DNA of 64,000 bases from Nocardioides marmoriginsengisoli (GTDB lineage: Bacteria > Actinomycetota > Actinomycetes > Propionibacteriales > Nocardioidaceae), in contig NZ_RJSE01000003.1 of assembly GCF_003725695.1 (NCBI RefSeq), positions 506,026 to 570,025 on the forward strand. The letters are read 5' to 3'. This document shows, in pieces, positions 6,001 to 48,766 of this stretch; the first letter of the stretch is position 1; each line of letters opens with the position of its first letter. Under the pieces are notes generated by a model. The model was given only the letters and a program-made list of their open reading frames with translations, was not told the DNA's origin and did not search any database. The translations under genes were made by a program, and so were the position numbers.

Positions 6001-6895
6001 GGATCGAGGCGTTCCGCATGTTCCGGGTCAGCGTGATCGAGCCGCCGTCGAGCGGCAGGACCAGGATCTCCTTGACCTGGTTCTTGTACGTCGGCGACCA
6101 CCAGCTCTGGTCGGACATCGTGTTGTCGGCGTTGACCGAGGTGACCTTCTTGGTGTTGACGTTGCCGGAGATCGGCGCCGTGGTCAGGGTCTCGCTGGTG
6201 ACGTTCGACGGGGCGTTGAACACCATCGTGTCGGGGCCGAAGGCCGAGTTGCCGGTGCCTCCCAAGGAGCCGGCGTCGTAGCTGAAGCCGCCGTTGTAGT
6301 CGACGTTCGTGTTGGTGTTCCACGAGTCGCCGGCGTTGAGCGGGAAGTTGTGGACCTTCCAGGTCGAGTCGCGCGGGGTCAGCTGCAGGTTGATGTCCGC
6401 GGTGATGCCCGTGGAGATGATCGAGACCTTCGCGGTCGCGTTCATGTGCTGGAACTGGTTCTCCTGCAGCAGCGCGAGGTCGGAGACGCGCACGTAGCGG
6501 GTGCCGGACACGGTGCCGGAGAAACCGCTGAGGGTCGCGTTGCCGACGCCGTCGACGGCCACCTGGCCGCTACCGGAGGTGATCGAGCCGTTGATGTTGA
6601 GCTTGTAGGCGTCCTGGCCCTGGAACGTCTCACGGCTCGCGACCGTGTAGGTCACGCTCTCGTTGATGGTGACGTCGGTGCCGGTGGCCTGGTAGCGGAA
6701 CGAGGTGTCCCAGTTCCAGTTCCAGCCGATGTTCCAGGCCGGTACGTCGTCGCCGGGCGCCTGCACGGCCTGCGCCGGCGCGACGCCGACACTGACCAGA
6801 GCGGCCGCACAGAGGGCGATGACGGCCGAGATGGCTGTCGTCGCGCGAGTGGTACGGCGACGGACCGTGCCGTCGGAAGATACGCGTGGGCGCAT
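3005..6895 (-). CDS. Secreted Ig-like-repeat protein, 1296 aa
   Basis: The ATG at 6895 is preceded by AAGGGG with a 7-nt spacer. Residues 1-43 are a long signal peptide (twin-basic start, hydrophobic core, APAQA cleavage). Residues about 45-310 form a Trp- and Asn-rich domain I do not recognise, with few charged residues and many short beta-like strands. One Ig-like domain resembling a Big_1 fold follows, then about seven Big_3_5 domains of roughly 95 residues (for example TVTIGDDVTFSSTV, PSTYGEFISFTATV). The chain ends in a short beta domain with no LPXTG motif or C-terminal helix, so it is probably secreted or held non-covalently. It is a paralogue of the gene to its left. Adhesin or surface-layer stalk is a reasonable inference only. 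Confidence 0.9.
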   Translation of the reverse strand: MRPRVSSDGTVRRRTTRATTAISAVIALCAAALVSVGVAPAQAVQAPGDDVPAWNIGWNWNWDTSFRYQATGTDVTINESVTYTVASRETFQGQDAYKLNINGSITSGSGQVAVDGVGNATLSGFSGTVSGTRYVRVSDLALLQENQFQHMNATAKVSIISTGITADINLQLTPRDSTWKVHNFPLNAGDSWNTNTNVDYNGGFSYDAGSLGGTGNSAFGPDTMVFNAPSNVTSETLTTAPISGNVNTKKVTSVNADNTMSDQSWWSPTYKNQVKEILVLPLDGGSITLTRNMRNASIPSGPQFSATTTPSLTCAGGDVTVAGNLSTGAAGVPVTVRLDQSQVTAGQYVTANTTTGANGAYSVNLTTPGISDGLGKNGSRANWGITVAGAGATGASTVVVTPTNCSTIAYTGATSAPVSGAATVSAQLTDLANPAGAAGKTVTFALGGGGSVNAVTNGSGVATATLPMNGPVRNTNVSVSYAGSAGLAAASASTGFAVQVNPTSTTVLPSLTTVTIGDDVTFSSTVTPSVGSNPGGAVQFLVDGAAFGAPRPVTGGTATSAALNTGPLSLGDHTVQAVYNGDANFGTSSSATATFRVRVPLLPSSTSLSIAPNSTVYGEQVTLSSHVTTTSGSGNPTGSVTFSEGGTVFGSAPVDGSGNASIDTSTIPVGTHAIVATYSGDDEYNGGASSPGTLTVAKADVDVQLTSSDTTTVSGESVNFGVSVGAQAPGSGLPDGTVQLVIDGGNVGSPVALTGGVANFDPVSSLLVGNHTVAVNYSGSGNFKSGSDSLSQVVSQADTTTVVTVSPSPSSEDQLVTITANVGAVAPGGGAATGLVTFTADGDPIGAGSLSPSSGGAKATLQTSTLAAGSHTIVATYEGDTDYAASESDPKSHTVIAGAAVVGTSTVVTSSQNPSTYGEFISFTATVTAEDSSAASGAVQFSIDGTDIGIPVEVGPDGTAQSPLVSSPEPGDHTVIAAFVGNPGYSGSGDFLAQTVADAGVDLTVTSSNASSAYGDAVTFTATATTPQENIGDPNGHVQFRVDGVAVGGAVALNDGVATSPAVSNLTPGSHVVTADYSGSAHFAPALASTTQDVGKVSTTTTLVAAPSSVSFGQGVSLTATVTPGTAALGAPSGTVTFTEGSTTLGTAVVGASGTNGKATLAVSNLSGGTHLIKATYSGSAVFSGSASAASTVTVAKIATSITAQPALVKLLPPLALPLGQLKITLNSANGPVAGVPVNFTIGTATVCAGATTDAYGVATCNALPQLLTLTLFGYKVSFAGNGDYLPSNATGFIIK

Positions 6896-10545: not shown

Positions 10546-10572
10546 CCATCCGTCGTGCGAGCAGGACCGAAG
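10546..10572 (+). promoter_or_regulatory. SigK-like promoter, leaderless, for the molybdoenzyme gene
   Basis: CCATCC (10546-10551), a 15-bp spacer and CCGAAG (10567-10572) closely match the mycobacterial SigK consensus as I recall it (CCATCC-N16/17-CCGAAT). The -10 ends 7 nt before the ATG at 10580, so the mRNA would begin at the start codon. The second copy at 12172 in the same locus strengthens the call. Confidence 0.65.
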
Positions 10573-10579
10573 ACCTTCC

Positions 10580-12145
10580 ATGGAGCGAACGTCACGTACG
10601 ACATCCTGGTCCGTGGTCCGGCGTGCGCGCGAGAACGGACCGTTCGCCCTGGCCGGGGTCTTCGCCGCGGCCTTCGCCGTCGCGATCGCCCATCTCGTCG
10701 CCAGCCTGCTCCACCCGCAGTCCTCCCCGATCCTTGCCGTCGGCAGCGCGGTCATCGACGCGACGCCCACCCCGATGAAGACGTGGGCGATCCGCCAGTT
10801 CGGCACCAACGACAAGATCGTCCTGATCGGCAGCGTGCTCGCCGGGACCCTCGTCCTCGCGCTCGTCGCCGGGATCATCGCTCGCCGCCACCTCCGGGTC
10901 GGGCTGGCGATCACCTTCCTCCTGGTCGCGCTCGCCGGTGCCGCCGCACTGCGACGCCCGACCGCTGAGATCCTCGATCTCGTCCCGGCCGTGACGGCCG
11001 CACTTCTTGGACCGCTCACCCTTTGGTGGCTGGTCCGGGCGCTGCTGGCCTCGGAGGGACCTGCAGCGGCCTCTGACGCCGAGCCCGGCAGTTCGCGCAG
11101 AGGCTTCCTGATCGGCTCCGGCGCGTTGCTGCTCGGCGGTGCGGTGGCTGCCGGAGCCGGTCAGTGGATCTACAAGGTCCGGTCCTCGCTCGGCAACATC
11201 CGCCTTCCCGGAGCAGCCAAGACGCTCCCGCCCCTCCCGGCAGGACTGGAGACGACGATCCCCGGGATCACTCCGTTCGTCACGCCGAACGCGAGGTTCT
11301 ACCGGGTCGACACCAAGCTGGCCGTCCCGATCGTGGACCACTCCAGCTGGCGGCTGAGCATCGACGGGATGGTCGACAACCCGTTCTCGATCACGTACGA
11401 CGAGCTCCGCGACATGGTGTTCGAGGAGAGCGACATCACCCTCACCTGCGTGAGCAACGAAGTGGGCGGTCGCTACGTCGGCGCCGCCCGCTGGCTCGGC
11501 GTCCCGCTGCGTCGGATCCTCGACCGGGCCGGCGTCTCCCCCGATGCCGACCAGCTGATGAGCGAGGACGTCGAGGGCTTCAAGATCGGTACGCCGATGT
11601 CCGCCCTGATGGACGGGCGCAACGCGATCGTCGCCATCGGCATGAACGGCAAGGTGCTCCCCCGCGAGCACGGATTCCCGGCCCGCCTGGTCGTCCCCGG
11701 GCTCTACGGCTTCGTCAGCGCGACCAAGTGGGTCACCAGGCTGACGGCGACGACGTACGCGAAGGACACGTCGTACTGGACCGACCGCAAGTGGGCGACC
11801 GACGCACCGATCAAGATCGCGGCCCGGATCGACACCCCGCGTCCGCTGACCAACATCGACCCGGGAGCGACCGCGATCGGCGGCGTCGCCTGGGCCCAGG
11901 GCACCGGCATCGAACGGGTCGAGGTGAGCATCGACGGGGGCCGGTGGCAGGTGGCCGAGCTCGGACCGGACGGCGGCAACGACTACTGGCGCCAGTGGTT
12001 CCTGCGCTGGGACGCGACCAAGGGCAACCACCGACTCGCGGTCCGGGCGATCGGCAAGGACGGGGCCGAGCAGACGGCAGTCAAGGCGAGCCCCTTCCCC
12101 GACGGATCCAGCGGCATCCAGCAGGTGCTGGTCAACGTCACCTGA
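10580..12145 (+). CDS. Membrane-anchored molybdopterin-dependent oxidoreductase (sulfite-oxidase family)
   Basis: The 521-aa protein has four hydrophobic segments (about 22-42, 81-100, 107-125, 138-158). A twin-Arg segment SRRGFL then leads into a fifth helix, and a large extracytoplasmic domain follows. The latter is sulfite-oxidase-like: a Moco-binding domain with the putative Mo ligand Cys290 (LTCVSNEVGG) and a C-terminal Ig-like dimerisation domain (GIERVEVSIDGGRW). I chose ATG 10580 because a SigK-like -10 ends 7 nt upstream; an in-frame GTG at 10529 would overlap that promoter. The family transfers oxygen atoms or reduces oxidised substrates, but the substrate is unknown. It opens the SigK locus and probably acts in the envelope. 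Confidence 0.85.
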   Translation: MERTSRTTSWSVVRRARENGPFALAGVFAAAFAVAIAHLVASLLHPQSSPILAVGSAVIDATPTPMKTWAIRQFGTNDKIVLIGSVLAGTLVLALVAGIIARRHLRVGLAITFLLVALAGAAALRRPTAEILDLVPAVTAALLGPLTLWWLVRALLASEGPAAASDAEPGSSRRGFLIGSGALLLGGAVAAGAGQWIYKVRSSLGNIRLPGAAKTLPPLPAGLETTIPGITPFVTPNARFYRVDTKLAVPIVDHSSWRLSIDGMVDNPFSITYDELRDMVFEESDITLTCVSNEVGGRYVGAARWLGVPLRRILDRAGVSPDADQLMSEDVEGFKIGTPMSALMDGRNAIVAIGMNGKVLPREHGFPARLVVPGLYGFVSATKWVTRLTATTYAKDTSYWTDRKWATDAPIKIAARIDTPRPLTNIDPGATAIGGVAWAQGTGIERVEVSIDGGRWQVAELGPDGGNDYWRQWFLRWDATKGNHRLAVRAIGKDGAEQTAVKASPFPDGSSGIQQVLVNVT

Positions 12146-12171
12146 CCTGCGAACAAAAGGTCGCCGTTCTC

Positions 12172-12199
12172 CAATCCGGCACCGCGGTGCGCACCGAAT
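12172..12199 (+). promoter_or_regulatory. SigK-like promoter for the fasciclin lipoprotein
   Basis: CAATCC (12172-12177), a 16-bp spacer and CCGAAT (12194-12199) match the SigK pattern with one mismatch in the -35 and a perfect -10. The spacer contains a 12-bp perfect palindrome, GCACCGCGGTGC (12179-12190). The start point would lie near 12206, leaving a leader of about 70 nt before the ATG at 12279. Confidence 0.7.
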
Positions 12200-12278
12200 G
12201 ACTCCTCGAGAAGCAGAGCGCCGAGCGCTCACCCGCTGAACCGTCAGAAGAAGATCCACCCGACGAAAGGCACGACCC

Positions 12279-12896
12279 ATGTCCTCCTCCATCCTGCGCA
12301 GGACCGGCGCGATCGCGTCGATCACCCTCGCGCTCTCCTTCGGTCTCGCTGCCTGTGGCGACGACGACAGCGACTCCGGTTCGACCGGCACCGACGGGTC
12401 GTCCGCTCCCGCCGCAGCGGGCGAGAACTTCGGTGCCGGTTGTGCCGCCGTCCCGACCGAGGGCCCCGGCTCGTTCAACGGCATGGCCACCGCCCAGGTC
12501 GCCACCGCCGCCAGCTCGAACCCGGTCCTCTCCACCCTGGTCGCCGCCGTCAAGGCGGCCGACCTGGTCGACACCCTGAACAGCGCCGAGGCGCTCACCG
12601 TCTTCGCCCCGGCCGACTCGGCCTTCGCGAAGATCCCGAGCAAGACCCTCAACGGCCTGATCGCCGACGTCCCGGCCCTCACCAAGGTCCTGCAGCACCA
12701 CGTGATCGCCGGCAAGATCGCCCCGGCCGACCTGGCCGGGGAGCACGAGACCCTGGCCGGCGACAAGATCACCGTCGTGGGCTCGGGCGAGGACTTCACC
12801 GTCGACGGTGCCACCGTGAAGTCGAAGGTCGTGTGCGGCAACGTGCAGACCGCGAACGCCACGGTCTACATCATCGACACCGTCCTGACCGACTGA
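12279..12896 (+). CDS. Fasciclin-domain lipoprotein, MPT83/MPT70-like
   Basis: The 205-aa protein has a lipoprotein signal (LAAC, lipidated Cys26), an Asp/Ser/Thr-rich linker, and one FAS1 domain (about 60-205). It carries the conserved H1 and H2 regions: VDTLNSAEALTVFAPADSAF, and ATVYIIDTVL at the end. Cysteines in GAGCAAVP and VVCGNV match the conserved pair of MPT83/MPT70, so a disulfide is likely. GAAAGG lies 8 nt before the ATG. In M. tuberculosis the mpt83/mpt70 genes are SigK targets; here the gene sits directly in front of sigK behind a SigK-like promoter, so a positive loop is likely. FAS1 proteins bind matrix or cell-surface partners; the partner here is unknown. Confidence 0.93.
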   Translation: MSSSILRRTGAIASITLALSFGLAACGDDDSDSGSTGTDGSSAPAAAGENFGAGCAAVPTEGPGSFNGMATAQVATAASSNPVLSTLVAAVKAADLVDTLNSAEALTVFAPADSAFAKIPSKTLNGLIADVPALTKVLQHHVIAGKIAPADLAGEHETLAGDKITVVGSGEDFTVDGATVKSKVVCGNVQTANATVYIIDTVLTD

Positions 12897-12941
12897 TTCA
12901 GTCAGACTGAGAACCAGCACCGACAGGAAGAGGACGACCTC

Positions 12942-13547
12942 GTGTCACACCTCCAGCCCGTTCCCTCCGGCGAGACCACGCCGGAGGGAACGGGTGCGCC
13001 GGCGCCGGCGCTGGCCGACTACCTGCGACGCTCGGCACGCGGGGACGAGGAGGCCTTCGCCGCCCTGTACGACGCCACCTCCGCACGCGTGCACGGTCTC
13101 GTCCTGCGCGTCGTCCGCGACCCGGCCCAGTCCGAGGAGGTCACCCAGGAAGTCTTCCTCCAGGTCTGGCGCACGGCCGCTCGGTTCGACGAGACCAAGG
13201 GCAGCGCACTGGCCTGGCTGATGACCCTGGCCCACCGCCGAGCCGTGGACCGGGTCCGTGCCGCGGAGGCCGTCACCCGCCAGGACACCAGCTACCACCA
13301 AACCTCGCGGACAGTCCCCCACGACAGCACGGCCGAAGCAGCCGAGGCGTCGATGGAGGCCCGCCGGGTCCGCTCGGCGCTCTCCGAGCTCACGACCGTC
13401 CAGCGCGAGGCGCTGGAGCTCGCCTACTTCGGCGGCTACACGCACACCGAGGTGGCAACTATGCTCGATCTACCGGTCGGCACTGCGAAGACCCGCATCC
13501 GGGACGGCCTCATCCGGTTGCGCGACGCGATGGGAGTGGGCCAATGA
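12942..13547 (+). CDS. sigK: ECF RNA polymerase sigma factor SigK
   Basis: The 201-aa ECF sigma factor has sigma-2 at about 25-95 (EEAFAALYDATSARVHGLVLRVV; EEVTQEVFLQVWRTAARFD) and sigma-4 at about 140-195 (LTTVQREALELAYFGGYTHTEVATMLDLPVGTAKTRIRDGLIRLR). It uses GTG at 12942, with AGGAAGAGGA upstream. The stop overlaps the start of the anti-sigma gene (ATGA). Assignment to SigK rests on sequence and on neighbours that mirror the M. tuberculosis SigK regulon. Unlike M. tuberculosis SigK, for which a redox-sensitive disulfide has been described, this protein contains no cysteine. It probably directs transcription from the promoters at 10546 and 12172. Confidence 0.93.
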   Translation: MSHLQPVPSGETTPEGTGAPAPALADYLRRSARGDEEAFAALYDATSARVHGLVLRVVRDPAQSEEVTQEVFLQVWRTAARFDETKGSALAWLMTLAHRRAVDRVRAAEAVTRQDTSYHQTSRTVPHDSTAEAAEASMEARRVRSALSELTTVQREALELAYFGGYTHTEVATMLDLPVGTAKTRIRDGLIRLRDAMGVGQ

Positions 13548-14263
13548 CAGCTCACGAGATTCACGCCCTGGCCGGGGCCTACGCCGTGGACGCTCTCGAC
13601 GACGTCGAGCGGGCCCGGTTCGAGGAGCACCTCGCGGTGTGCGCGGAGTGCCGGGCCGAGGTCGCCAGCCTCGCCGACGCCACCCTGCTGCTCTCCGAGG
13701 TCACCGCGGTGGCGCCCCCGGCGTCGATGCGCGGCGCGATCCTCGCCGACATCAAGAAGGTTCGCCCGCTGCCCCCGGCGGTGGCCCGGATCGAGAAGCG
13801 CCGCCCGCGACGCTGGACCGGCCTGGTCGCCGCTGCCGTCGCCCTCGGGGTACTCGGCGGCGGCTCGTACGTCGTGCTGCAGATCCAGGACGACTCGTCC
13901 GAGGTCGGGCTGACCGCGGCCGACCGGGTGCTGCGGGCCAGCGACGTCCAGCACGTCACCGCCGACCTCGCCCGGGGCGGCGTCGCGACGGTGTTCCACT
14001 CGGCGAAGCAGGGCAAGGCCGTCGTCGTCACCGAGGGCCTCCCACCCGCCCCGTCCGGGCACGTCTACCAGCTCTGGCTCCGCAAGGCCTCCGGCATGGT
14101 GCCGGCCGGCTTCATCACCGGGACCGGTGAGCAGACCGAGCTCTTCGAGGGCGGGCTCGCGGGCGCCTCCGGTGCCGGGATCACGATCGAGCCCGACGGC
14201 GGATCGAAGGTCCCGACCCTGCCCGTCGTCGCTCTGGTCGACTTCGAGCCGGACGCGACATGA
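13544..14263 (+). CDS. rskA: Anti-sigma-K factor RskA, zinc-type
   Basis: The 239-aa membrane protein has an N-terminal cytoplasmic anti-sigma domain with a Hx3Cx2C motif (His29, Cys33, Cys36), which defines the zinc anti-sigma fold. A helical stalk, one transmembrane helix (about 91-113) and an extracytoplasmic RskA C-terminal domain (GHVYQLWLRKASGMVPAG) follow. It overlaps sigK and the following gene by 4 bp each. It should hold SigK at the membrane until regulated intramembrane proteolysis or loss of zinc releases it. As far as I recall, M. tuberculosis RskA lacks this Cys motif, so the sensing chemistry may differ here. Confidence 0.93.
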   Translation: MTAHEIHALAGAYAVDALDDVERARFEEHLAVCAECRAEVASLADATLLLSEVTAVAPPASMRGAILADIKKVRPLPPAVARIEKRRPRRWTGLVAAAVALGVLGGGSYVVLQIQDDSSEVGLTAADRVLRASDVQHVTADLARGGVATVFHSAKQGKAVVVTEGLPPAPSGHVYQLWLRKASGMVPAGFITGTGEQTELFEGGLAGASGAGITIEPDGGSKVPTLPVVALVDFEPDAT

Positions 14264-16287
14264 CCCCGGAGAACACGCGTCGCGTCGGCATCGTCGGCAG
14301 TGGCGTCGCTGGCCTGACGGCTGCCTTCGTGATCAGCAGGTCGGCCCGGGTCACCCTCCTCGAGGCCGACGACCGGCTCGGCGGGCACGCCGACACGCAC
14401 ACCGTCGCGACCGCCGACGGGCCGGTCGCCGTCGACACCGGGTTCATCGTGCACAACGAGCGCACCTACCCGACCCTGCTGCGGATGTTCGCCGAGCTCG
14501 GCGTCGAGACGCAGCCCTCGGACATGTCGATGTCGGTGCGCGCCGACGGCGAGCACGGCGGTCGCGGCCTGGAGTGGGCCGGTGCGCTCGGGCCGGCCGG
14601 GTTGTTCCCGACCTGGCGCAACCTGGTGCGGCCGTCGTACCTGCGGATGCTGACCGAGATCCCGCGGTTCCACCGCCGGGCCCGGCGGCTGCTGGCCGCA
14701 CCGGAGGCGACCGACGACGACCTGACGCTGGCGGAGTTCCTGGAGGCCGGCCGGTTCTCGGCGTACTTCCGGCGGAACTTCATGACGCCGCTGGTCGCGT
14801 GCGTCTGGTCCTGCGACCCGGCCGTCGCGCTGGAGTACCCGGCCCGCTACTTGTTCGCGTTCCTCGAGCACCACGGGATGCTGACCGTCTACGGGTCGCC
14901 GCAGTGGCGCACCGTCACCGGCGGTTCGCACCAGTACGTCGCCAAGGTCGCGGCCGCGATCGAGCACCGCGGCGGGACGATCCTGCTCGACACCAAGGCG
15001 ACCTCGGTGGTCGAGACCGCCGACGGGGTCGAGGTCACCGACGGCAACGGCCGGGTGCACTGCTTCGACGCCGTGGTCGTCGCCACCCACCCGGACCAGG
15101 CACTCGGCCTGCTCGCCGAACCGACGGCGCTGCAGACCGAGCTGCTCGGCGCGATGCCGTACTCGGCCAACGTCGCGCACCTGCACACCGACGACGCGGT
15201 GATGCCGCGGAACCGCAAGGCCTGGGCGTCCTGGAACCAGTGGGACCGGCCGGACCAGGGCGCCGTGACGGTCACCTACGACCTGACCCGGTTGATGTCG
15301 CTGCCCGCGGGCGATCCGGACGGCGTCCGCTACTTCGTCACGCTCGGCGCGACCGAGGTGATCGACCCGGCGAAGGTGATCGCCCGGCGCGACTACGCGC
15401 ACCCGATCTACACCCCGTCCTCGGTCGCGGCCCAGCGCCGGCTGCCCGGGATCGACAGCGACCGCCTGGTCTTCGCCGGGGCCTGGCGCGGGTGGGGCTT
15501 CCACGAGGACGGAGCGCGCTCGGGTGCCGCGGCTGCCGAGCGACTCGGGTTCGCGTGGGCCACGGACGTCGAGCCGGTCGAGACTCCGGCCGCGCCGCGG
15601 ATCTACCGCAGCACGATCACGCACACCAGGCGGACGCCGCTCAAGAACCGGTTCAGCAGCACCGCGCACCTCTGGCTGGTCGACCTCGACGCCCTGCCGG
15701 ACCACGGGCCGCTGGGCCGCTTCGTCGCCCGGGACCACCTCGGCGATCCCGGGCTGACCATCCGCCAGAACGTCGAGGCGTTCCTCGCCGCGGAGGGCGT
15801 GGTGGCCGACGGCCGGATCCTGATGGCCGCCAACGCCCGGGCGTTCGGCTACAACTTCAACCCGATCAGCGTCTTCTGGTGCCACGCCTCCACCGGCGAC
15901 CTGGCCGCCACCGTGGTCGAGGTGCACAACACGTACGGCGACCGGCACGCCTACCTGGTGCACGCCGATGCCGCCGGACGCGCGCTGGTCGGCAAGGAGA
16001 TGTACGTCTCGCCGTTCCACGGCACCGACGGGCACTACGAGCTCACCGTCCCGGTCCCGGCCGACCGGCTGCTGATCGCGGTCCGGCTGGTCACCGGGAC
16101 CGGCTCGCCCTTCGACGCCACCCTGCGCGGCGAGCTCGTCGCCGGCACGCCCCGCGGGGTGGTGCTGCGCGCGGCACCGGCAGCCCTCCTCGGCGCCCTG
16201 CGGATCCGCGCCCAGGGCATCCGCCTCTGGCTCCGCCGACTGCCGGTGCAGCCCCGCCCCCGTCACCACCAGGAAGGTGTCCGATGA
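14260..16287 (+). CDS. Fused FAD-dependent amine oxidase-like / DUF1365 protein
   Basis: The 675-aa protein joins two domains encoded by separate adjacent genes in the M. tuberculosis SigK operon (Rv0449c and Rv0448c types). Residues 1-430 are a flavin amine oxidase/desaturase-like domain, with the dinucleotide motif GIVGSGVAGL at 10-19 and a C-terminal FAD segment (VFAGAWRGWGFHEDGARSG). Residues about 447-675 are DUF1365 (RIYRSTITHTRR, LVDLDALPD, FNPISVFWC, VEVHNTYGDRH). The linker at about 435-442 is encoded by a dispersed 22-bp repeat. There is no frame break, so this is a real fusion. Together with the fatty-acid methyltransferases downstream, a role in modifying unsaturated acyl chains of membrane lipids is a fair inference. 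It overlaps both neighbours by 4 bp. Confidence 0.9.
   Translation: MTPENTRRVGIVGSGVAGLTAAFVISRSARVTLLEADDRLGGHADTHTVATADGPVAVDTGFIVHNERTYPTLLRMFAELGVETQPSDMSMSVRADGEHGGRGLEWAGALGPAGLFPTWRNLVRPSYLRMLTEIPRFHRRARRLLAAPEATDDDLTLAEFLEAGRFSAYFRRNFMTPLVACVWSCDPAVALEYPARYLFAFLEHHGMLTVYGSPQWRTVTGGSHQYVAKVAAAIEHRGGTILLDTKATSVVETADGVEVTDGNGRVHCFDAVVVATHPDQALGLLAEPTALQTELLGAMPYSANVAHLHTDDAVMPRNRKAWASWNQWDRPDQGAVTVTYDLTRLMSLPAGDPDGVRYFVTLGATEVIDPAKVIARRDYAHPIYTPSSVAAQRRLPGIDSDRLVFAGAWRGWGFHEDGARSGAAAAERLGFAWATDVEPVETPAAPRIYRSTITHTRRTPLKNRFSSTAHLWLVDLDALPDHGPLGRFVARDHLGDPGLTIRQNVEAFLAAEGVVADGRILMAANARAFGYNFNPISVFWCHASTGDLAATVVEVHNTYGDRHAYLVHADAAGRALVGKEMYVSPFHGTDGHYELTVPVPADRLLIAVRLVTGTGSPFDATLRGELVAGTPRGVVLRAAPAALLGALRIRAQGIRLWLRRLPVQPRPRHHQEGVR
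15563..15584 (+). repeat. Copy 1 of a 22-bp dispersed repeat, at the domain-fusion junction
   Basis: The core GGACGTCGAGCCGGTCGAGA differs at one base from the copy at 17632-17653. In frame it encodes TDVEPVET, the linker between the FAD domain and DUF1365. Confidence 0.75.
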
Positions 16288-17660
16288 CCTCCGGCCTCGC
16301 CACTCCCCTCTCCGTCGATCACTGGACCGACATCTCACCGATCCGGCGCGGCCCGCGGGCACGGATCTCGACCGCGATCGCGCGCCGGATCTTCTTCCGG
16401 GTGGCCGAACGGCTCGGGGTCAGCGTCTCGCTCGGCGACACCCCGGAGCCCGGAGCCGAACCCGCTGACCTACGGCTGATCCTGCCCGAGGAGTTCTTCG
16501 CCCGCGTCGGCAACGACGGTCTGATCGGCTTCGGCGAGGCCTACATGACCGGCGCCTGGGAGGCCGACGACCTCGGCGAGGTGCTGACCGTGCTCTGCCG
16601 CGAGATCGGCGACCTCGTCCCGATGTGGATGCAGCGGCTGCGGGCCGTCTACGTCTCCCGGCCGCCGCGCCGGCAGCGCGGCAGCTCCCGGAACACCCGC
16701 AAGAACATCGCCCACCACTACGACCTCTCGAACGACCTGTTCCAGCTGTTCCTGGACCCGACGATGAGCTACTCGGCGGCGATGTTCCCCGCCGACTCGA
16801 TCACCGGCGGCGACGGCAATCGGACCCTGCTCGCGCCGCCGGTCCCCGGGTCCGACCTGGCCGAGGCCCAGGGCCGGAAGATCGAGAGCATCCTGGACGC
16901 CGCCGGCGTGACCGCGGGGAGCCGGGTGCTGGAGATCGGCACCGGCTGGGGCGAGCTCGCCATCCGGGCCGCGCGCCGGGGAGCCACCGTGCGCTCGGTG
17001 ACGCTGTCGAGCGAGCAGCAGTCCCTGGCCCGGGCGAGGTTCGCCGACGCGGTCGAGGCGGAGGGGCTGCGCGCCGACCTGGTGCAGGTGGACCTGCTCG
17101 ACTACCGCGCCGTCGAGGTTCCGCCGGGTTCGCCCGGCTTCGACGCGGTGGTCTCGGTGGAGATGATCGAGGCGGTCGGCTACGCCTACCTGCCGAGCTA
17201 CTTCGCGACCATCGACAAGGTGCTGGCTCCGGGCGGCAAGGTCGCGATCCAGGCGATCACGATGCCGCACGAGCGGATGCTCGCGACCCGTCGTACCTGG
17301 ACCTGGATCCACAAGTACATCTTCCCCGGCGGGTTCCTGCCGTCGACCGAACAGCTCGACGAGGTCACCCGCAAGCACACCTCGTTGCGGCTGGCCGGCC
17401 GGACGACCTTCGGCAGCCACTACGCCGAGACGCTGCGGCAGTGGGACACCGCGTTCGTCGCCGCGCACCAGGAGGTGCTCGACCTCGGTTTCGACGAGAC
17501 CTTCCGGAGGTTGTGGCACTTCTACCTGGAGTACTCGCGGGCCGGCTTCGCGTCCGGCTACATCGACGTGCAGCAGCTGACGTTCACCAGAGGCCCGGAC
17601 GCCGAGCCGAGCCCGGACGTCGAGCCGAGCCCGGACGTCGAGCCTGTCGAGACGAGGTGA
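16284..17660 (+). CDS. ufaA1: Cyclopropane-fatty-acid-synthase-family methyltransferase (UfaA1-like)
   Basis: The 458-aa SAM-dependent methyltransferase should act on double bonds of phospholipid acyl chains. Seen in order: an N-terminal lipid-binding domain, the family segment NIAHHYDLSNDLFQLFLDPTMSYS, SAM motif I VLEIGTGWGELAIRAARRG (about 213-231), and the acidic motif SVEMIEAVG. The C-terminus (FYLEYSRAGFASGYIDVQQLTF) is typical of Rv0447c/UfaA1 proteins. After that the protein carries an extra tail of three 6-residue repeats (PDAEPS, PDVEPS, PDVEPV) encoded by the 17594-17653 repeat. ATG 16284 overlaps the previous stop by 4 bp and has AGGAAGG upstream. Cyclopropanation versus methyl-branch formation cannot be decided from sequence. 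Confidence 0.92.
   Translation: MTSGLATPLSVDHWTDISPIRRGPRARISTAIARRIFFRVAERLGVSVSLGDTPEPGAEPADLRLILPEEFFARVGNDGLIGFGEAYMTGAWEADDLGEVLTVLCREIGDLVPMWMQRLRAVYVSRPPRRQRGSSRNTRKNIAHHYDLSNDLFQLFLDPTMSYSAAMFPADSITGGDGNRTLLAPPVPGSDLAEAQGRKIESILDAAGVTAGSRVLEIGTGWGELAIRAARRGATVRSVTLSSEQQSLARARFADAVEAEGLRADLVQVDLLDYRAVEVPPGSPGFDAVVSVEMIEAVGYAYLPSYFATIDKVLAPGGKVAIQAITMPHERMLATRRTWTWIHKYIFPGGFLPSTEQLDEVTRKHTSLRLAGRTTFGSHYAETLRQWDTAFVAAHQEVLDLGFDETFRRLWHFYLEYSRAGFASGYIDVQQLTFTRGPDAEPSPDVEPSPDVEPVETR
17594..17653 (+). repeat. Copy 2 of the dispersed repeat, with 18-bp tandem expansion
   Basis: Three 18-bp units (17594-17611, 17612-17629, 17630-17647) of the form CCCGGACGTCGAGCCGAG differ by one to three bases. 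The last merges into the full repeat core GGACGTCGAGCCTGTCGAGA at 17633-17652. The array is in frame and forms the protein tail. Confidence 0.8.
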
Positions 17661-17665
17661 CGAGG

Positions 17666-18973
17666 ATGACCGACGTCACCACCCGCCCGGTAGCGACCAA
17701 GCCCGCCGGTGTCGCGCAGACGCTCGCGGCCGCACTCCGCCCGGTCGTCGGTGGCGACCTCCCGGTCGAGCTGCACGCCTGGGACGGTTCGGTGGCGGGC
17801 ACCGGCCCGGTCGTCCGGCTGAACTCCGCGCAGGCGCTCACCCGGCTGCTCTGGGCTCCCGGCGAGCTCGGCGCGGCTCAGGCGTACGTGACCGGTGAGA
17901 TCGACGTCGACGGCGACCTGGACGCCGCGCTGACCCACGTCCGGGCGGTGATCGGCGAGCGCAGGGTAACGGGGGTCTCCGCGTCGCCGGGCACCGTCTG
18001 GCGGGCGGCACGCGCGGCGCTGAAGGTGGGCGCGCTCGGCCGGCGTCCGGCGGCACCCGCGTCGCAGGCGGTGCTCCGCGGCCGGCTGCACAGCAAGGGT
18101 CGCGACCGGCAGGCGATCAGCCACCACTACGACTTCTCGAACGACTTCTACGAGGCGATCCTCGACGAGAACATGGCCTACTCCTCGGGCTACTTCGCCT
18201 CCCCTGGGACGAGCCTGGAGGACGCCCAGGCGGCCAAGCTCGACCTGGTCTGCCGCAAGGTAGGGCTCGGGCCGGGCACGACGTTCCTCGACGTCGGCTG
18301 CGGCTGGGGCTCCCTGTCCCTGTACGCCGCGGAGCACTTCGGTGCCCGGGTCACCGGCATCACCATCGCCGCCGAGCAGAAGAAGTTCATCGACGCCCGG
18401 ATCGCCGAGCGCGGCCTGGGCGACCTGGTCCGGATCGAGCTCAGCGACTACCGCGACGCGACCGTGCCCGACGGTTCCGCCGGTTTCGACGCGGTCGCGT
18501 CGATCGAGATGGGCGAGCACGTCGGCCAGGGCAACTACCCGACGTACGTCGAGGTGCTGCGGCGCTCGGTGCGGCCCGGCGGCCGAGTCCTGGTCCAGGC
18601 CATGTCCCGGCCGGGACCGGGCGGCGGCAGGTACCCGGGCGGCGGCCCGTTCATCGAGTCCTTCATCGCGCCCGACATGACGATGCGCCCGGTCGGCGAG
18701 ACCGTCGCGCTGATCGAGGCCGGCGGGCTGGAGGTCCGCGACGTGCACGCGATGCGCGAGCACTACGTGCACACGGTGGACGCCTGGATCGAGCGGTTCG
18801 AGGCGGCGGTGCCGCACCTGCGGACCCTCGTCCCCGAGGAGTACCTCCGGGTCTGGCGGCTGTACCTGGTCGGTGGCGGGATGGCGTTCCGGGACGGCAG
18901 GATGGGGGTCGACCAGATCCTCGCGGTGCGTCCCGGCGCCCCGCACGACCTGCCGGCGGTGCGCGACCTTTGA
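17666..18973 (+). CDS. Second cyclopropane-fatty-acid-synthase-like methyltransferase
   Basis: The 435-aa protein has an N-terminal SCP2-like/lipid-binding region (LPVELHAWDGSVAG ... AYVTGEIDVDGDL), then the CFA catalytic domain: RQAISHHYDFSNDFYEAILDENMAYSSGYF, SAM motif I FLDVGCGWGSLSLYAAEHFG, and SIEMGEHVGQGNYP. It is diverged from the preceding UfaA1-like protein and is nearer the general Cfa type, so this is an old duplication or independent acquisition rather than a recent copy. The ATG follows the previous stop by 5 bp with GAGG close by. Two such enzymes in one operon suggest sequential or position-specific modification of acyl chains. Confidence 0.92.
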   Translation: MTDVTTRPVATKPAGVAQTLAAALRPVVGGDLPVELHAWDGSVAGTGPVVRLNSAQALTRLLWAPGELGAAQAYVTGEIDVDGDLDAALTHVRAVIGERRVTGVSASPGTVWRAARAALKVGALGRRPAAPASQAVLRGRLHSKGRDRQAISHHYDFSNDFYEAILDENMAYSSGYFASPGTSLEDAQAAKLDLVCRKVGLGPGTTFLDVGCGWGSLSLYAAEHFGARVTGITIAAEQKKFIDARIAERGLGDLVRIELSDYRDATVPDGSAGFDAVASIEMGEHVGQGNYPTYVEVLRRSVRPGGRVLVQAMSRPGPGGGRYPGGGPFIESFIAPDMTMRPVGETVALIEAGGLEVRDVHAMREHYVHTVDAWIERFEAAVPHLRTLVPEEYLRVWRLYLVGGGMAFRDGRMGVDQILAVRPGAPHDLPAVRDL

Positions 18974-19848
18974 GCGGTGTCGATTTTCACTACAGCTACC
19001 CGTTCACGGATTTCCTAGTCGTCTCCGCGGTCTGCTTGGCGGTGGTCGTCGCACTGATGGTCCTGACCGCTGTCCTCACCAGGATCACCGGGCGGGTCTC
19101 GGTGGTCGACACCATCTGGGGACTCGGCTTCATCGCGGTCACGGTGACAGCCGTACTTTTCGGCCGGGCACGGCTGCGTGCGAACGAAGGCGAGGGCTGG
19201 TTCAGCTACAACCCGCTCGACCACTCCGGCGCTGTGGGCCGCGCACTCCAGCAGAACGACGACCGCGGGATCCTGCTGATCCTGCTGGTGCTGATCTGGG
19301 GCGGACGGCTCGCCTGGCACATCGGGAGCCGATCGCACGGCGGCGGCGAGGATCCCCGGTACACCGAGCTGATGGGGAAGGGCTCCGGCGGCCTGATCCG
19401 CAAGGTCCTCCTCCCCCAGGGCTTGGCGATCTGGTTCGTCTCGATGCCGATCCAGGTCACCGTGGTCGCCGGACACCACGTCTCCTGGGTCCTCTGGATC
19501 GGCGTCGCCCTCTTCGCGGTGGGCCTCGCCTTCGAGACGATCGGCGACGCCCAGCTGGCGTCCTACAAGAAGGACCCGGCGCGCGGACCGGTGATGGACC
19601 GCGGGCTCTGGCGCTACACCCGGCACCCGAACTATTTCGGCGACGCCTGCGTCTGGTGGGGCATCTACCTGGTCTGCGCCTCGTCCTGGCCGGGCATCTT
19701 CACGATCCTCTCCCCGGTCGCGATGACCTACTTCCTGGTCTTCGCCACCGGCGCCCGCCTGCTGGAACGCACGATGATGCAGCGCTCCGGCTACCCCGAG
19801 TACGCCGCCCGCACGAGCATGTTCTTCCCCCTCCCCCCAAGACGTTGA
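18970..19848 (+). CDS. DUF1295 membrane protein (steroid 5-alpha-reductase-like)
   Basis: The 292-aa protein has about seven hydrophobic helices and the family signature RYTRHPNYFGDACVWWG near residues 216-232, followed by LLERTMMQRSGYPEYAART. It uses a TTG start that overlaps the preceding stop (TTGA). The fold is shared with steroid 5-alpha-reductases and isoprenylcysteine methyltransferases. In the M. tuberculosis SigK operon the equivalent is Rv0446c. An NAD(P)H-dependent reduction of a lipid double bond would complement the upstream flavoprotein and methyltransferases, but this is an inference. It is the last gene of the operon and faces mnmA. Confidence 0.88.
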   Translation: MSGVDFHYSYPFTDFLVVSAVCLAVVVALMVLTAVLTRITGRVSVVDTIWGLGFIAVTVTAVLFGRARLRANEGEGWFSYNPLDHSGAVGRALQQNDDRGILLILLVLIWGGRLAWHIGSRSHGGGEDPRYTELMGKGSGGLIRKVLLPQGLAIWFVSMPIQVTVVAGHHVSWVLWIGVALFAVGLAFETIGDAQLASYKKDPARGPVMDRGLWRYTRHPNYFGDACVWWGIYLVCASSWPGIFTILSPVAMTYFLVFATGARLLERTMMQRSGYPEYAARTSMFFPLPPRR

Positions 19849-19865
19849 GTAGGCCCGTCTTGCCG

Positions 19866-19959
19866 GTTGAGTGGGCCCGTTCTGCGGGCCCTCGGCGCAT
19901 GGGTCGCAAACTCGACCAACCGATCGGGCCCCTTCAACGAAAGATGGGGCCCACTCAAC
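19866..19959. terminator. Inverted-repeat element between convergent DUF1295 and mnmA genes
   Basis: A 13-bp perfect inverted repeat (GTTGAGTGGGCCC at 19866-19878 and GGGCCCACTCAAC at 19947-19959) encloses 68 bp. An extra direct near-copy, GTTGAGTAGGCCCG, begins at 19844, and a partial inverted copy, GGGCCCCTTCAAC, lies at about 19926-19938. The right arm covers the mnmA stop codon. It could act as a bidirectional terminator. GTTGAGTAG-type short repeats are ones I recall from Nocardioides-like genomes. Confidence 0.6.
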
Positions 19960-21043
19960 GGAGGGTGGCGGAGATGGTGCCGGAGCCGACGACCCGGCTG
20001 CCGTCGTACACCACGCAGGCCTGACCGGGGGCGATCCCCGAGGCCGGGTCGTGCAGGACGACGTCGAACCCGTTGTCCGACGGGCTCACCACGGCGCGGT
20101 GCTCCTCGCCATGGGCCCGGAGCTGGACGGTGCACTCCTGGGGCCCTGACGGGGCGGTGCCGCACCAGAGCGGACGGATGCAGGTGAGGCCGGTGACCGC
20201 CAGCGCCTCCCGCGGACCGACAGTCACGGTCCCGGAGACCGGCTCGATGTCCAGCACGAACCGCGGCTTGCCGTCGGCCGCCGGGGTGCCGATCCGCAGG
20301 CCCTTGCGCTGCCCGATCGTGAACCTCCAGGAGCCCTCGTGCTCGCCGAGGACCTCGCCTGCCTCGTCCACGATCGAGCCGGAGCTGTTCGGGGCCGCGT
20401 CACCGAGCTTCTCGCCGAGCCATCCGCCGGTGTCCCCGTCGCTGATGAAGCAGATGTCGTGGCTGTCGGGCTTGTCGGCGACCTGCAGCCCGCGGCGCTC
20501 GGCCTCGATCCGGATCTCCGGCTTCGAGGTGTCGCCCAGGGGGAACAACGAGTGCGCGAGCTGGTCCTGGGTCAGCACTCCGAGCACGTACGACTGGTCC
20601 TTGCCGGCGTCGACCGCGCGGTGCATCTCGATCAGGCCGTCGGCTCCGGTTCGCAGCTGGGCGTAGTGACCCGTCACGACGGCGTCGTACCCGAGCGCCA
20701 GCCCCCGGTCCAGCACCGCGGCGAACTTGATCTTCTCGTTGCAGCGCAGGCACGGGTTCGGCGTCCGGCCGCCGGCGTACTCGGCCAGGAAGTCCTCGAC
20801 CACGTCCTCGTGGAACCGGTCGGACAGGTCCCAGACGTAGAACGGGATCCCGATCACGTCGGCCGCCCGCCGGGCGTCGTTGGAGTCCTCGATCGTGCAG
20901 CAGCCGCGCGCCCCGGTGCGGTAGGACTGCGGGTTGCGCGAGAGCGCCAGGTGGATGCCGGTGACGTCGTGCCCCGCCTCGGCCGCCCGAGCGGCGGCAA
21001 CCGCGGAATCCACGCCGCCGGACATCGCGGCCAGTACCTTCAC
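19955..21043 (-). CDS. mnmA: tRNA-uridine 2-sulfurtransferase MnmA
   Basis: The 362-aa enzyme thiolates U34 of tRNAs for Lys, Glu and Gln using ATP and sulfur relayed from a cysteine desulfurase. It shows the PP-loop motif [13 protein letters not shown] at the N-terminus, the first catalytic Cys in [12 protein letters not shown], and the second in DICFISDG. The C-terminal beta-barrel follows ([14 protein letters not shown]). GTG 21043 overlaps the stop of the desulfurase gene by 4 bp, coupling sulfur donor and acceptor. The stop codon lies inside the inverted repeat at 19947-19959. Confidence 0.97.
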
Positions 21044-48598: not shown

Positions 48599-48766
48599 GG
48601 GTTCCTCTTTCGGGTTATCGGCCGCCGGGTCGTCGGCTGGTGCAGACGTGAACCGGAGCCAGCGAGAGATTCTGCCACCTCAGAACACCTGAGGGCCAAT
48701 CGGCATTCCCCACCCCCGGCACGGTCCGGACGGACGCGCCCACGTACGGGTTGGTCTCCCAGCCGC

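What the first reader, a model, noticed from the sequence alone, without database searches (positions are those of the whole stretch)
10546..19848. Complete SigK-type regulon in a non-mycobacterial setting, with a molybdoenzyme added
Seen: SUOX-like oxidoreductase, fasciclin lipoprotein, sigK, rskA, flavin oxidase-DUF1365 fusion, two CFA-like enzymes and DUF1295 lie in one direction, mostly with 4-bp overlaps. Known: M. tuberculosis SigK controls Rv0449c-Rv0445c and the mpt83/mpt70 loci, which lie apart there. Here they are joined, as if this were a compact form of the regulon. Inferred: an envelope lipid-remodelling and redox response whose product may be an unusual methylated, cyclopropane or furan-type fatty acid.
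Basis: partly seen in the sequence, partly recalled or inferred. Interest (0 to 1): 0.75.

Follow-up and report, generated by a model that had tools for sequence, protein, structure and literature searches.

The report
SigK stress operon with lipid genes
A soil-type actinobacterium carries one self-activating stress operon that joins a SigK switch, a surface protein, a molybdenum enzyme and genes that probably make an unusual protective membrane fatty acid, and its relatives hint that the long-unknown trigger of SigK could be light-driven oxidation.

Summary
Eight co-directional genes (10580-19848) encode a sulfite-oxidase-like membrane molybdoenzyme, the genome's only detected FAS1 protein, SigK, RskA, a flavin oxidase-DUF1365 fusion, two CFA-like methyltransferases and DUF1295. 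SigK passes the curated SigK cut-off and groups with SigK, not RpoE. SigK-type promoter sites precede the molybdoenzyme and FAS1 genes; strict sites lie within 1 kb upstream of 87 of 121 sigK genes, 0 of 121 in the reversed control. The layout recurs across Nocardioidaceae, and the FAS1-sigK-rskA cassette and the lipid genes are published, so this is a variant of a known kind. I saw the molybdoenzyme link and the fusion described in no paper I could search, but key papers were not held. Both CFA-like enzymes lack two residues of solved cyclopropane synthases, so a methylated or furan-type product is likelier than cyclopropane. Boldest reading: SigK is an actinobacterial counterpart of the singlet-oxygen RpoE-ChrR system (matching gene sets, light-induced FAS1 genes in M. 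kansasii, photolyase clustering, LitR-like neighbours). Against: no SigK site at 30 photolyase loci, none before the host's own photolyase, no photolyase in 55 family loci. Signal, lipid and molybdoenzyme substrate are untested.

The parts
10546..10571 (+). SigK-type promoter 1 (CCATCC-N15-CCGAA), ending 8 nt before the SUOX ATG; implies a leaderless or nearly leaderless transcript
   Evidence: the DNA search 1 hit, shuffles mean 0.06; same kind of site upstream of SUOX in 29 of 49 hits (loose pattern)
10580..12145 (+). Sulfite-oxidase-fold molybdoenzyme, 521 aa, five long N-terminal helices, RR motif, Mo-ligand Cys290
   Evidence: Pfam PF00174; model pLDDT 86.5; Foldseek best SorA 2blf 1.8e-23; R173, R174 and C290 invariant in 30 aligned
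12172..12198 (+). SigK-type promoter 2 (CAATCC-N16-CCGAA) before the FAS1 gene
   Evidence: the DNA search 1 hit, shuffles mean 0.07; upstream of FAS1 in 43 of 55 hits (loose pattern)
12279..12896 (+). FAS1 (MPT83/MPT70-like) lipoprotein, 205 aa, lipobox LAAC
   Evidence: Pfam Fasciclin 3.4e-28; only FAS1 match in the genome; lipobox read from the sequence
12942..13547 (+). sigK, ECF sigma factor, 201 aa, no cysteine
   Evidence: NF007228 267.5 bits, cut-off 226; best PDB match M. tuberculosis SigK 4nqw 8.8e-49, next RpoE 2q1z 5.3e-23; tree
13544..14263 (+). rskA, membrane anti-sigma factor with N-terminal HxxxCxxC and RskA_C domain
   Evidence: Pfam RskA_C, zf-HC2, RskA_N; PDB matches 3hug_B (named only 'probable conserved membrane protein'; RslA is recalled), ChrR 2q1z/2z2s, RskA 4nqw, all weak (6.7e-05 to 0.0055)
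14260..16287 (+). Fusion of UfaD-like flavin oxidase and UfaO-like DUF1365 protein, 675 aa
   Evidence: Pfam Amino_oxidase 1e-30 and DUF1365 3.6e-52; 39% best-segment identity, residues 1-667 matched, to the rpoE-adjacent pair of a Rhodobacteraceae locus (L131)
16284..17660 (+). CFA/UfaM-like methyltransferase 1, 458 aa
   Evidence: Pfam CMAS 3.1e-76; Ala and Gln where solved CFA synthases have Cys and His
17666..18973 (+). CFA/UfaM-like methyltransferase 2, 435 aa
   Evidence: Pfam CMAS 1.4e-72; Ser and Gln at the same two columns
18970..19848 (+). DUF1295 membrane protein, 292 aa (TTG start, 4-bp overlap with CFA2)
   Evidence: Pfam PF06966 4.8e-60

Best explanation
It is a SigK-RskA stress operon of Nocardioidaceae that switches itself on. 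RskA, anchored in the membrane, holds SigK through its N-terminal HxxxCxxC domain. When an envelope oxidation signal destroys or loosens RskA, SigK-RNA polymerase reads two SigK promoters, before the molybdoenzyme and before FAS1, and so makes more SigK, RskA and all downstream enzymes. The products are an exported surface/redox pair (membrane-anchored sulfite-oxidase-fold enzyme plus FAS1 lipoprotein) and a phospholipid-modifying set (UfaM-like methyltransferases, then the UfaD-UfaO fusion) that most likely makes a methyl-branched unsaturated or furan fatty acid able to absorb oxidants. By analogy with RpoE-ChrR, where furan lipids are needed for ChrR turnover, the lipid may also be part of the sensor. 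Shown by sequence: gene set, SigK identity, promoter sites and their conservation, fusion, residue changes. Inferred: use of the promoters, signal, loss of RskA, lipid product, molybdoenzyme substrate.
For: SigK identity. Autoregulation: a strict SigK-type site within 1 kb upstream of sigK in 87 of 121 loci, reversed control 0 of 121; 47 of 48 in the cysteine-free Nocardioidaceae set. In 12 of 12 family loci with rskA but no SUOX-FAS1 hit, a site lies 126-416 bp before the sigK domain. Lipid module under SigK: 16 of 29 free-standing actinobacterial modules carry their own site, against 0 of 39 that follow rskA and 0 of 45 Pseudomonadota, reversed control 0. Of 19 genomes with free-standing modules that I tested, 8 of 8 with the site hold a SigK over cut-off, against 6 of 11 without it. 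Furan-type chemistry: UfaD/UfaO/UfaM families (PMC7380195 passages); non-CFAS residues in both methyltransferases. Oxidative/light link: R. sphaeroides RpoE-regulon table with cfaS, RSP_1091, RSP_1090, FAS1 and phrA; R. capsulatus SigK-like rpoE-chrR induced by singlet oxygen beside cryB (PMC7074977); light-induced mpk83/mpk70 in M. kansasii (PMC9861118); photolyase within 12 kb of a listed sigK in 8 of 53 photolyase-bearing genomes, 4 genera, expected 0.23-0.47.
Against: No expression or lipid data for this organism. No SigK site at 30 photolyase loci and none before the host's own photolyase; no photolyase in 55 family sigK loci, where three unrelated control genes reach 3-6. In the 45 Pseudomonadota loci photolyase (2) does not exceed a control gene (mutB, 3). 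In M. kansasii dipZ was not light-induced and the FAS1 induction was small (6- and 3-fold). Three of the five actinobacterial lipid-module loci with a photolyase are Janibacter, so not independent. 13 of 29 free-standing modules and 34 of 121 sigK genes lack a strict site. One of the two residue changes is not general: 11 of 53 actinobacterial CFA2 hits keep the Cys. RSP_1087-1089 are dispensable for furan synthesis in R. sphaeroides, so DUF1295 is unexplained.
Confidence: 0.62

Rival explanations
1. The operon answers a general envelope redox or surface signal unrelated to light (for example reduction, acid, metal or contact). The photolyase and LitR neighbours only reflect stress-gene clustering.
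For: M. tuberculosis SigK-RskA is described as redox-sensitive in a cited title, its signal is called unknown, and macrophage contact is the only condition found to activate mpt70p (PMC7509140, PMC9861118). A YedY-type molybdoenzyme is under an ECF sigma in Caulobacter metal stress (PMC3511200 passages). No photolyase near sigK in 55 family loci.
Against: SigK here has no cysteine, so the disulfide of the M. tuberculosis protein is absent. The gene set matches the singlet-oxygen RpoE regulon; photolyase proximity exceeds expectation.
Confidence: 0.35
2. The lipid product is a 10-methyl (tuberculostearic-type) or methylene-branched acid rather than a furan acid; the flavin oxidase acts as reductase and DUF1365 does something else.
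For: UfaA1 (Rv0447c) was reported to make 10-methylstearate in vitro (PMC5660069 and PMC10127668 passages). CFA1 is the type found in the loci with the lipid genes before sigK. Two methyltransferases here.
Against: 10-methylstearate in E. coli came from BfaA/BfaB, an operon that M. smegmatis has although it lacks sigK-rskA, so it is not this operon. DUF1365 is the UfaO domain, and UfaD resembles phytoene-desaturase-like flavoproteins.
Confidence: 0.3
3. The molybdoenzyme is an ordinary sulfite oxidase and the operon deals with sulfite or sulfur stress.
For: Closest fold and sequence are SorA/sulfite oxidase; Mo-ligand cysteine kept.
Against: In the alignment to SorA the partners of Arg55 and His57 are Val243 and Thr245, and the stretches holding Arg109 and Tyr236 fall in gaps (residue roles partly recalled). 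NCBIfam SorA/SoxC/SorT cut-offs missed by far (121.1/600, 110.6/420, 97.2/570 bits). The alignment is ambiguous by one residue at the invariant Arg242.
Confidence: 0.15
4. The genes are neighbours by chance.
For: None found.
Against: SUOX+FAS1 upstream with the lipid module downstream in 24 of 121 sigK loci; promoter conservation.
Confidence: 0.02

Closest known systems
M. tuberculosis SigK-RskA regulon (Rv0449c-Rv0444c, mpt83-dipZ-mpt70; gene order partly recalled)
   Same: SigK clade, RskA, flavin oxidase, DUF1365, CFA-like, DUF1295, FAS1 lipoprotein, promoter motif type (motif recalled)
   Different: One operon; lipid genes after rskA, not before sigK; oxidase and DUF1365 fused; second methyltransferase; molybdoenzyme; no SigK cysteines; RskA with HxxxCxxC; no DipZ in the operon
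mpt83-sigK-rskA cassette (Veyrier 2008, as described in PMC7509140)
   Same: FAS1 gene directly before sigK-rskA with a SigK site
   Different: SUOX added upstream and lipid module downstream
RpoE-ChrR (ECF11) singlet-oxygen response of Rhodobacter sphaeroides
   Same: UfaD, UfaO, UfaM, FAS1 and a zinc-binding-type anti-sigma factor under an ECF sigma
   Different: Sigma factor in another clade; ChrR has a cytoplasmic cupin-like domain (recalled), RskA a membrane span; no molybdoenzyme in the quoted regulon table
UfaM-UfaD-UfaO furan fatty acid pathway (PMC7380195)
   Same: Same three enzyme families
   Different: UfaD and UfaO fused; two methyltransferases in the operon; product not shown
SorA / sulfite oxidase family
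   Same: Fold, Mo-ligand Cys, SorA-like C-terminal domain in the model
   Different: Five long N-terminal helices; canonical sulfite-binding residues not aligned

Membership tests
SigK (ECF18/19-type sigma factor) | Curated SigK model over cut-off | tested here: met
   NF007228 267.5 bits, cut-off 226
SigK (ECF18/19-type sigma factor) | In the SigK clade, apart from RpoE/ECF11 | tested here: met
   58-row tree (50 of the 121 SigK loci, chosen by me, and 8 RpoE rows), split at SH-aLRT 100 (quick method, long outgroup branch)
SigK (ECF18/19-type sigma factor) | Adjacent RskA-family anti-sigma factor | tested here: met
   RskA_C 88.9 bits (cut-off 29.4); RskA_N 27, just at its cut-off 27
SigK (ECF18/19-type sigma factor) | Cysteine pair C133/C183 | tested here: not met
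   No cysteine in the protein; pair absent in 59 of 121 loci. Not strictly defining: kept in 56% of ECF19 and 94% of ECF18 (PMC7509140)
SigK regulon | SigK-type promoters before the genes | tested here: met
   the motif consensus was recalled from the mycobacterial literature, not seen in a call
SigK regulon | DipZ with paired FAS1 genes | tested here: not met
   One FAS1 match in the genome, no DipZ in the operon; DipZ elsewhere in the genome not tested
Furan fatty acid pathway (UfaM/UfaD/UfaO) | DUF1365 and UfaD-like flavoprotein homologues together with a methyltransferase | tested here: met
   papers. No direct comparison with the R. sphaeroides proteins themselves
Furan fatty acid pathway (UfaM/UfaD/UfaO) | Furan fatty acid made | not testable with these tools
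   Needs GC-MS
Cyclopropane fatty acid synthase | Cys and His of the bicarbonate site (role recalled) | tested here: not met
   CFA1 Ala/Gln, CFA2 Ser/Gln against 6bqc, 5z9o, 7qos
Sulfite oxidase (SorA/SorT/SoxC) | Sulfite-oxidase fold with Mo-ligand Cys | tested here: met
Sulfite oxidase (SorA/SorT/SoxC) | Substrate-binding Arg/His/Tyr set | tested here: inconclusive
   Not aligned; invariant R242 one residue away
RpoE-ChrR (ECF11) | Sigma factor in the ECF11 clade | tested here: not met
   it may work like one, it is not one

The most novel reading that the evidence does not exclude
SigK-RskA is the actinobacterial counterpart of RpoE-ChrR: a photo-oxidative (singlet-oxygen type) stress system in which a furan or methyl-branched lipid made by the operon both absorbs the oxidant and reports it to RskA, while the FAS1 lipoprotein and the membrane molybdoenzyme protect or repair the outer surface. 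The unknown trigger of SigK, including in mycobacteria, would then be light-driven or peroxide-driven lipid oxidation.
Probability: 0.42. Interest if true: 0.82.

Novelty: new variant of a known kind. Interest (0 to 1): 0.55.

Why it matters
SigK controls the antigens MPT70 and MPT83 of tubercle bacilli, yet PMC7509140 states that its signal is unknown. A soil-type relative with the whole response in one operon gives a clean test system. If the photo-oxidative reading holds, two separate sigma/anti-sigma lineages use the same lipid chemistry, which would make the SigK signal and the function of the SigK-linked lipid genes directly testable.

Tried and rejected
Chance neighbourhood: rejected by synteny and promoters. 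Sensor swap (cysteine-free SigK paired with zinc-motif RskA in place of the SigK disulfide): not supported as a rule, since HxxxCxxC goes with cysteine SigKs (47 of 62) as well as with cysteine-free ones (51 of 59); PMC7509140 already reports many cysteine-free SigKs, 23% of them with abnormal RskA. Photolyase as a free-standing SigK target: no site at 30 loci, none before the host's own gene. Own-genome scans are near chance outside the operon: CCATCC-N14..18-CCGAA gave 11 matches against 6 for the pattern read backwards, and the only one with N15 is the SUOX site; CAATCC-N15/16-CCGAA gave 3 against 1. L002, L005 and L271 (spacer 16) were left as likely chance. N15 with one mismatch gave 15 against 5: two are the SUOX and hydrolase sites, the other 13 were not tested for conservation, and my coding-overlap script was uninformative because it also flagged those two. 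No terminator after DUF1295 by the simple scan. BfaA/BfaB set aside as model for the lipid step. Veyrier 2008 (PMC2258859), Dufour 2008 (PMC2579311) and the ECF classification paper (10.1093/nar/gkaa1229) are not held, so they may already describe the molybdoenzyme link or the gene sets. My paper searches listed papers of which I saw titles, abstract starts and, for some, passages; in these I saw no link of SigK with furan lipids or with a molybdoenzyme. Naming differs: PMC7509140 puts M. tuberculosis SigK in ECF18, PMC7406223 its RskA in AS19-1.

Full report
OBSERVATION. The window lies in a 4.46-Mb genome (16 contigs, G000:C14:506026-570025) whose nearest named relatives are Marmoricola and Nocardioides. 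Four of seven junctions overlap by 4 bp. The gene upstream points away; the next clearly coding gene downstream points towards the operon. The finding's start, 10546, is not the likely gene start (10580) but the first base of a SigK-type site.

SIGK IDENTITY. The sigma factor scores 267.5 bits with the curated SigK model (cut-off 226). Its best solved match is M. tuberculosis SigK (8.8e-49; the next, RpoE, 5.3e-23). In a 58-row tree, 50 SigK rows (picked by me from 121, the window's included) are split from 8 RpoE rows at SH-aLRT 100 (quick method, long outgroup branch, so the root inside SigK is unsure). It has no cysteine. Both cysteine columns are filled together in 62 and empty together in 59 of 121 loci, so the disulfide of the M. 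tuberculosis protein cannot be its sensor. PMC7509140 (abstract, found passages and sections 11-13 read) reports that cysteine-free Nocardia SigK is active without RskA activation and that the SigK signal is unknown. The RskA here is full length with HxxxCxxC; 98 of 117 RskA neighbours have this motif somewhere in the frame. PMC7406223 (passages) notes that the RskA group AS19-1 is mixed for the zinc motif.

PROMOTERS. Two sites, before SUOX and before FAS1, match CMATCC-N15/16-CCGAA; shuffles of the window give 0.06 and 0.07 such matches. With a looser pattern the sites occur upstream of FAS1 in 43 of 55, SUOX 29 of 49, sigK 37 of 121, rskA 6 of 118, FAD 7 of 43, DUF1365 7 of 50, CFA1 9 of 44, CFA2 0 of 39 and DUF1295 1 of 42 gene hits; reversed upstream regions gave 8 of 573. 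With the strict pattern, 87 of 121 sigK genes have one within 1 kb upstream, reversed control 0 of 121; in the cysteine-free Nocardioidaceae set 47 of 48. In 12 of 12 family loci with rskA but no SUOX-FAS1 hit, a site stands 126-416 bp before the sigK domain; two further family sigK loci without an rskA hit (L198, L199) have none. The lipid module is the sharpest test: 0 of 39 modules behind rskA, 16 of 29 free-standing actinobacterial ones and 0 of 45 Pseudomonadota ones carry their own site, reversed control 0 (2 more had short upstreams and were set aside; 7 places fetched twice were dropped). I tested 19 genomes with a free-standing module for SigK: all 8 with the site have a SigK over cut-off, and 6 of the 11 without it. 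A third candidate target in the own genome, an alpha/beta-hydrolase-like gene (my reading of the sequence, no family search) 12.6 kb upstream (G000:C14:503922), has a site, as do 5 of 23 homologue loci in the genus, the own one included.

SYNTENY. SUOX (within 5 kb) plus FAS1 (within 1.5 kb) upstream: 42 of 121. Lipid module (oxidase within 2.5 kb) downstream: 36 of 121. Both: 24 of 121. Eight loci outside the family have SUOX-FAS1-sigK-rskA without lipid genes downstream (L234, L236, L237, L243, L260, L262, L264, L266), and L217, L229, L238, L249 have the lipid genes before sigK, as recalled for M. tuberculosis. The oxidase-DUF1365 fusion was found in 35 of 43 sigK loci that hold both domains and in 15 of 80 named loci (64 split, 1 without a DUF1365 hit; 7 places occur in both sets), always within the window's family or in a record named Nocardioides, Marmoricola or Nocardioidaceae.

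ENZYMES. PMC7380195 (passages) shows that UfaM, UfaD and UfaO make a methyl-furan fatty acid, and that UfaO carries DUF1365. The window fusion matches the rpoE-adjacent pair of a Rhodobacteraceae locus at 39% best-segment identity, residues 1-667 matched (L131). Both methyltransferases lack the Cys and His seen at matching columns in 6bqc, 5z9o and 7qos. By a simple motif pattern, duplicates not removed, the first column is Ser or Ala in 78 of 78 actinobacterial CFA1 hits; in actinobacterial CFA2 hits it is Ser 26, Cys 11 and unread 16 of 53; in Pseudomonadota CFA2-type hits Ser 36 of 38, unread 2. The second column was not counted across homologues. That these residues hold bicarbonate for ring closure is recalled, not taken from a call. 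The molybdoenzyme model (pLDDT 86.5; residues 291-297 poor) is closest to SorA and has five long N-terminal helices. Its Mo cysteine is invariant in 30 sequences, but the SorA substrate residues do not align, so its substrate is open.

SIGNAL. The table in PMC7074977 (passages) lists for the R. sphaeroides RpoE regulon under photo-oxidative stress rpoE-chrR, cfaS, phrA, RSP_1091, RSP_1090 and a fasciclin gene (log2 2.8 and 4.5). The same paper says R. capsulatus RpoE is 34% identical to M. tuberculosis SigK, is induced by singlet oxygen and lies beside an operon with a cryptochrome/photolyase. PMC6852236 (passages) says furan lipids are required for ChrR turnover with singlet oxygen. PMC9861118 (passages) reports light induction of the SigK-type FAS1 genes mpk83 and mpk70 in M. 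kansasii, but not of dipZ. In my data a photolyase lies in 6 of 65 sigK loci L206-L270 (mostly outside the window's family) and in 5 of 26 actinobacterial lipid-module loci, against 0-2 of 65 and 0 of 26 for each of 16 control genes; but in 0 of 55 family loci (controls up to 6, from shared gene order) and in 2 of 45 Pseudomonadota loci (controls up to 3). L223 and L233 read sigK-rskA-photolyase with 4-bp overlaps or a 10-bp gap. A MerR-B12 (LitR/CarH-like, name partly recalled) gene stands divergently beside the lipid module in L095, L098, L099, L100, L102 and L104; Pfam was run on the L100 protein only, the others by similarity, and five of the six are Janibacter. Against: no SigK site at the 30 photolyase loci fetched, none before the host's own photolyase.

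VERDICT. A well-supported SigK operon with its own SigK-type promoters, a new variant of a known kind. The most useful outcome is the convergent case that SigK may be a photo-oxidative or lipid-oxidation sigma factor, which needs bench work.

Noticed in passing
G000:C14:503860-504602 (about 2.1 kb before window base 1; L272): Alpha/beta-hydrolase-like gene with a SigK-type site (CAATCC-N15-CCGAAT) about 60 nt before it, divergent from a DNA-ligase-like gene (both names read from the sequence); site in 5 of 23 homologue loci of the genus, own one included.
   Followed up: partly
L151, L152, L153, L154, L155, L156, L157, L175, about 3.2 kb after the sigK domain start: A CAATCC-N16-CCGAA match recurs inside the end of the DUF1365 coding region, shortly before CFA1; may be a third promoter or only conserved codons.
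   Followed up: no
19850-19960: Short inverted and repeated TTGAGTGGGCCC / GGGCCCACTCAA units after DUF1295; not scored as a terminator.
   Followed up: no
3005-6895 (-): 1296-aa frame with seven bacterial Ig-like (Big_3_5) stretches, a likely surface protein.
   Followed up: no
48620-48662 (-): Rfam L31-Actinobacteria ribosomal protein leader.
   Followed up: no
SigK tree, L232 and L261 against L211-L249: The SigK cysteine pair needs only two changes on the tree; with the RpoE root the pair looks like one gain and one loss, but the root is unsure.
   Followed up: partly
L247:7002-9766: Photolyase, an unassigned gene and a nitroreductase-family gene lie tightly before sigK.
   Followed up: no
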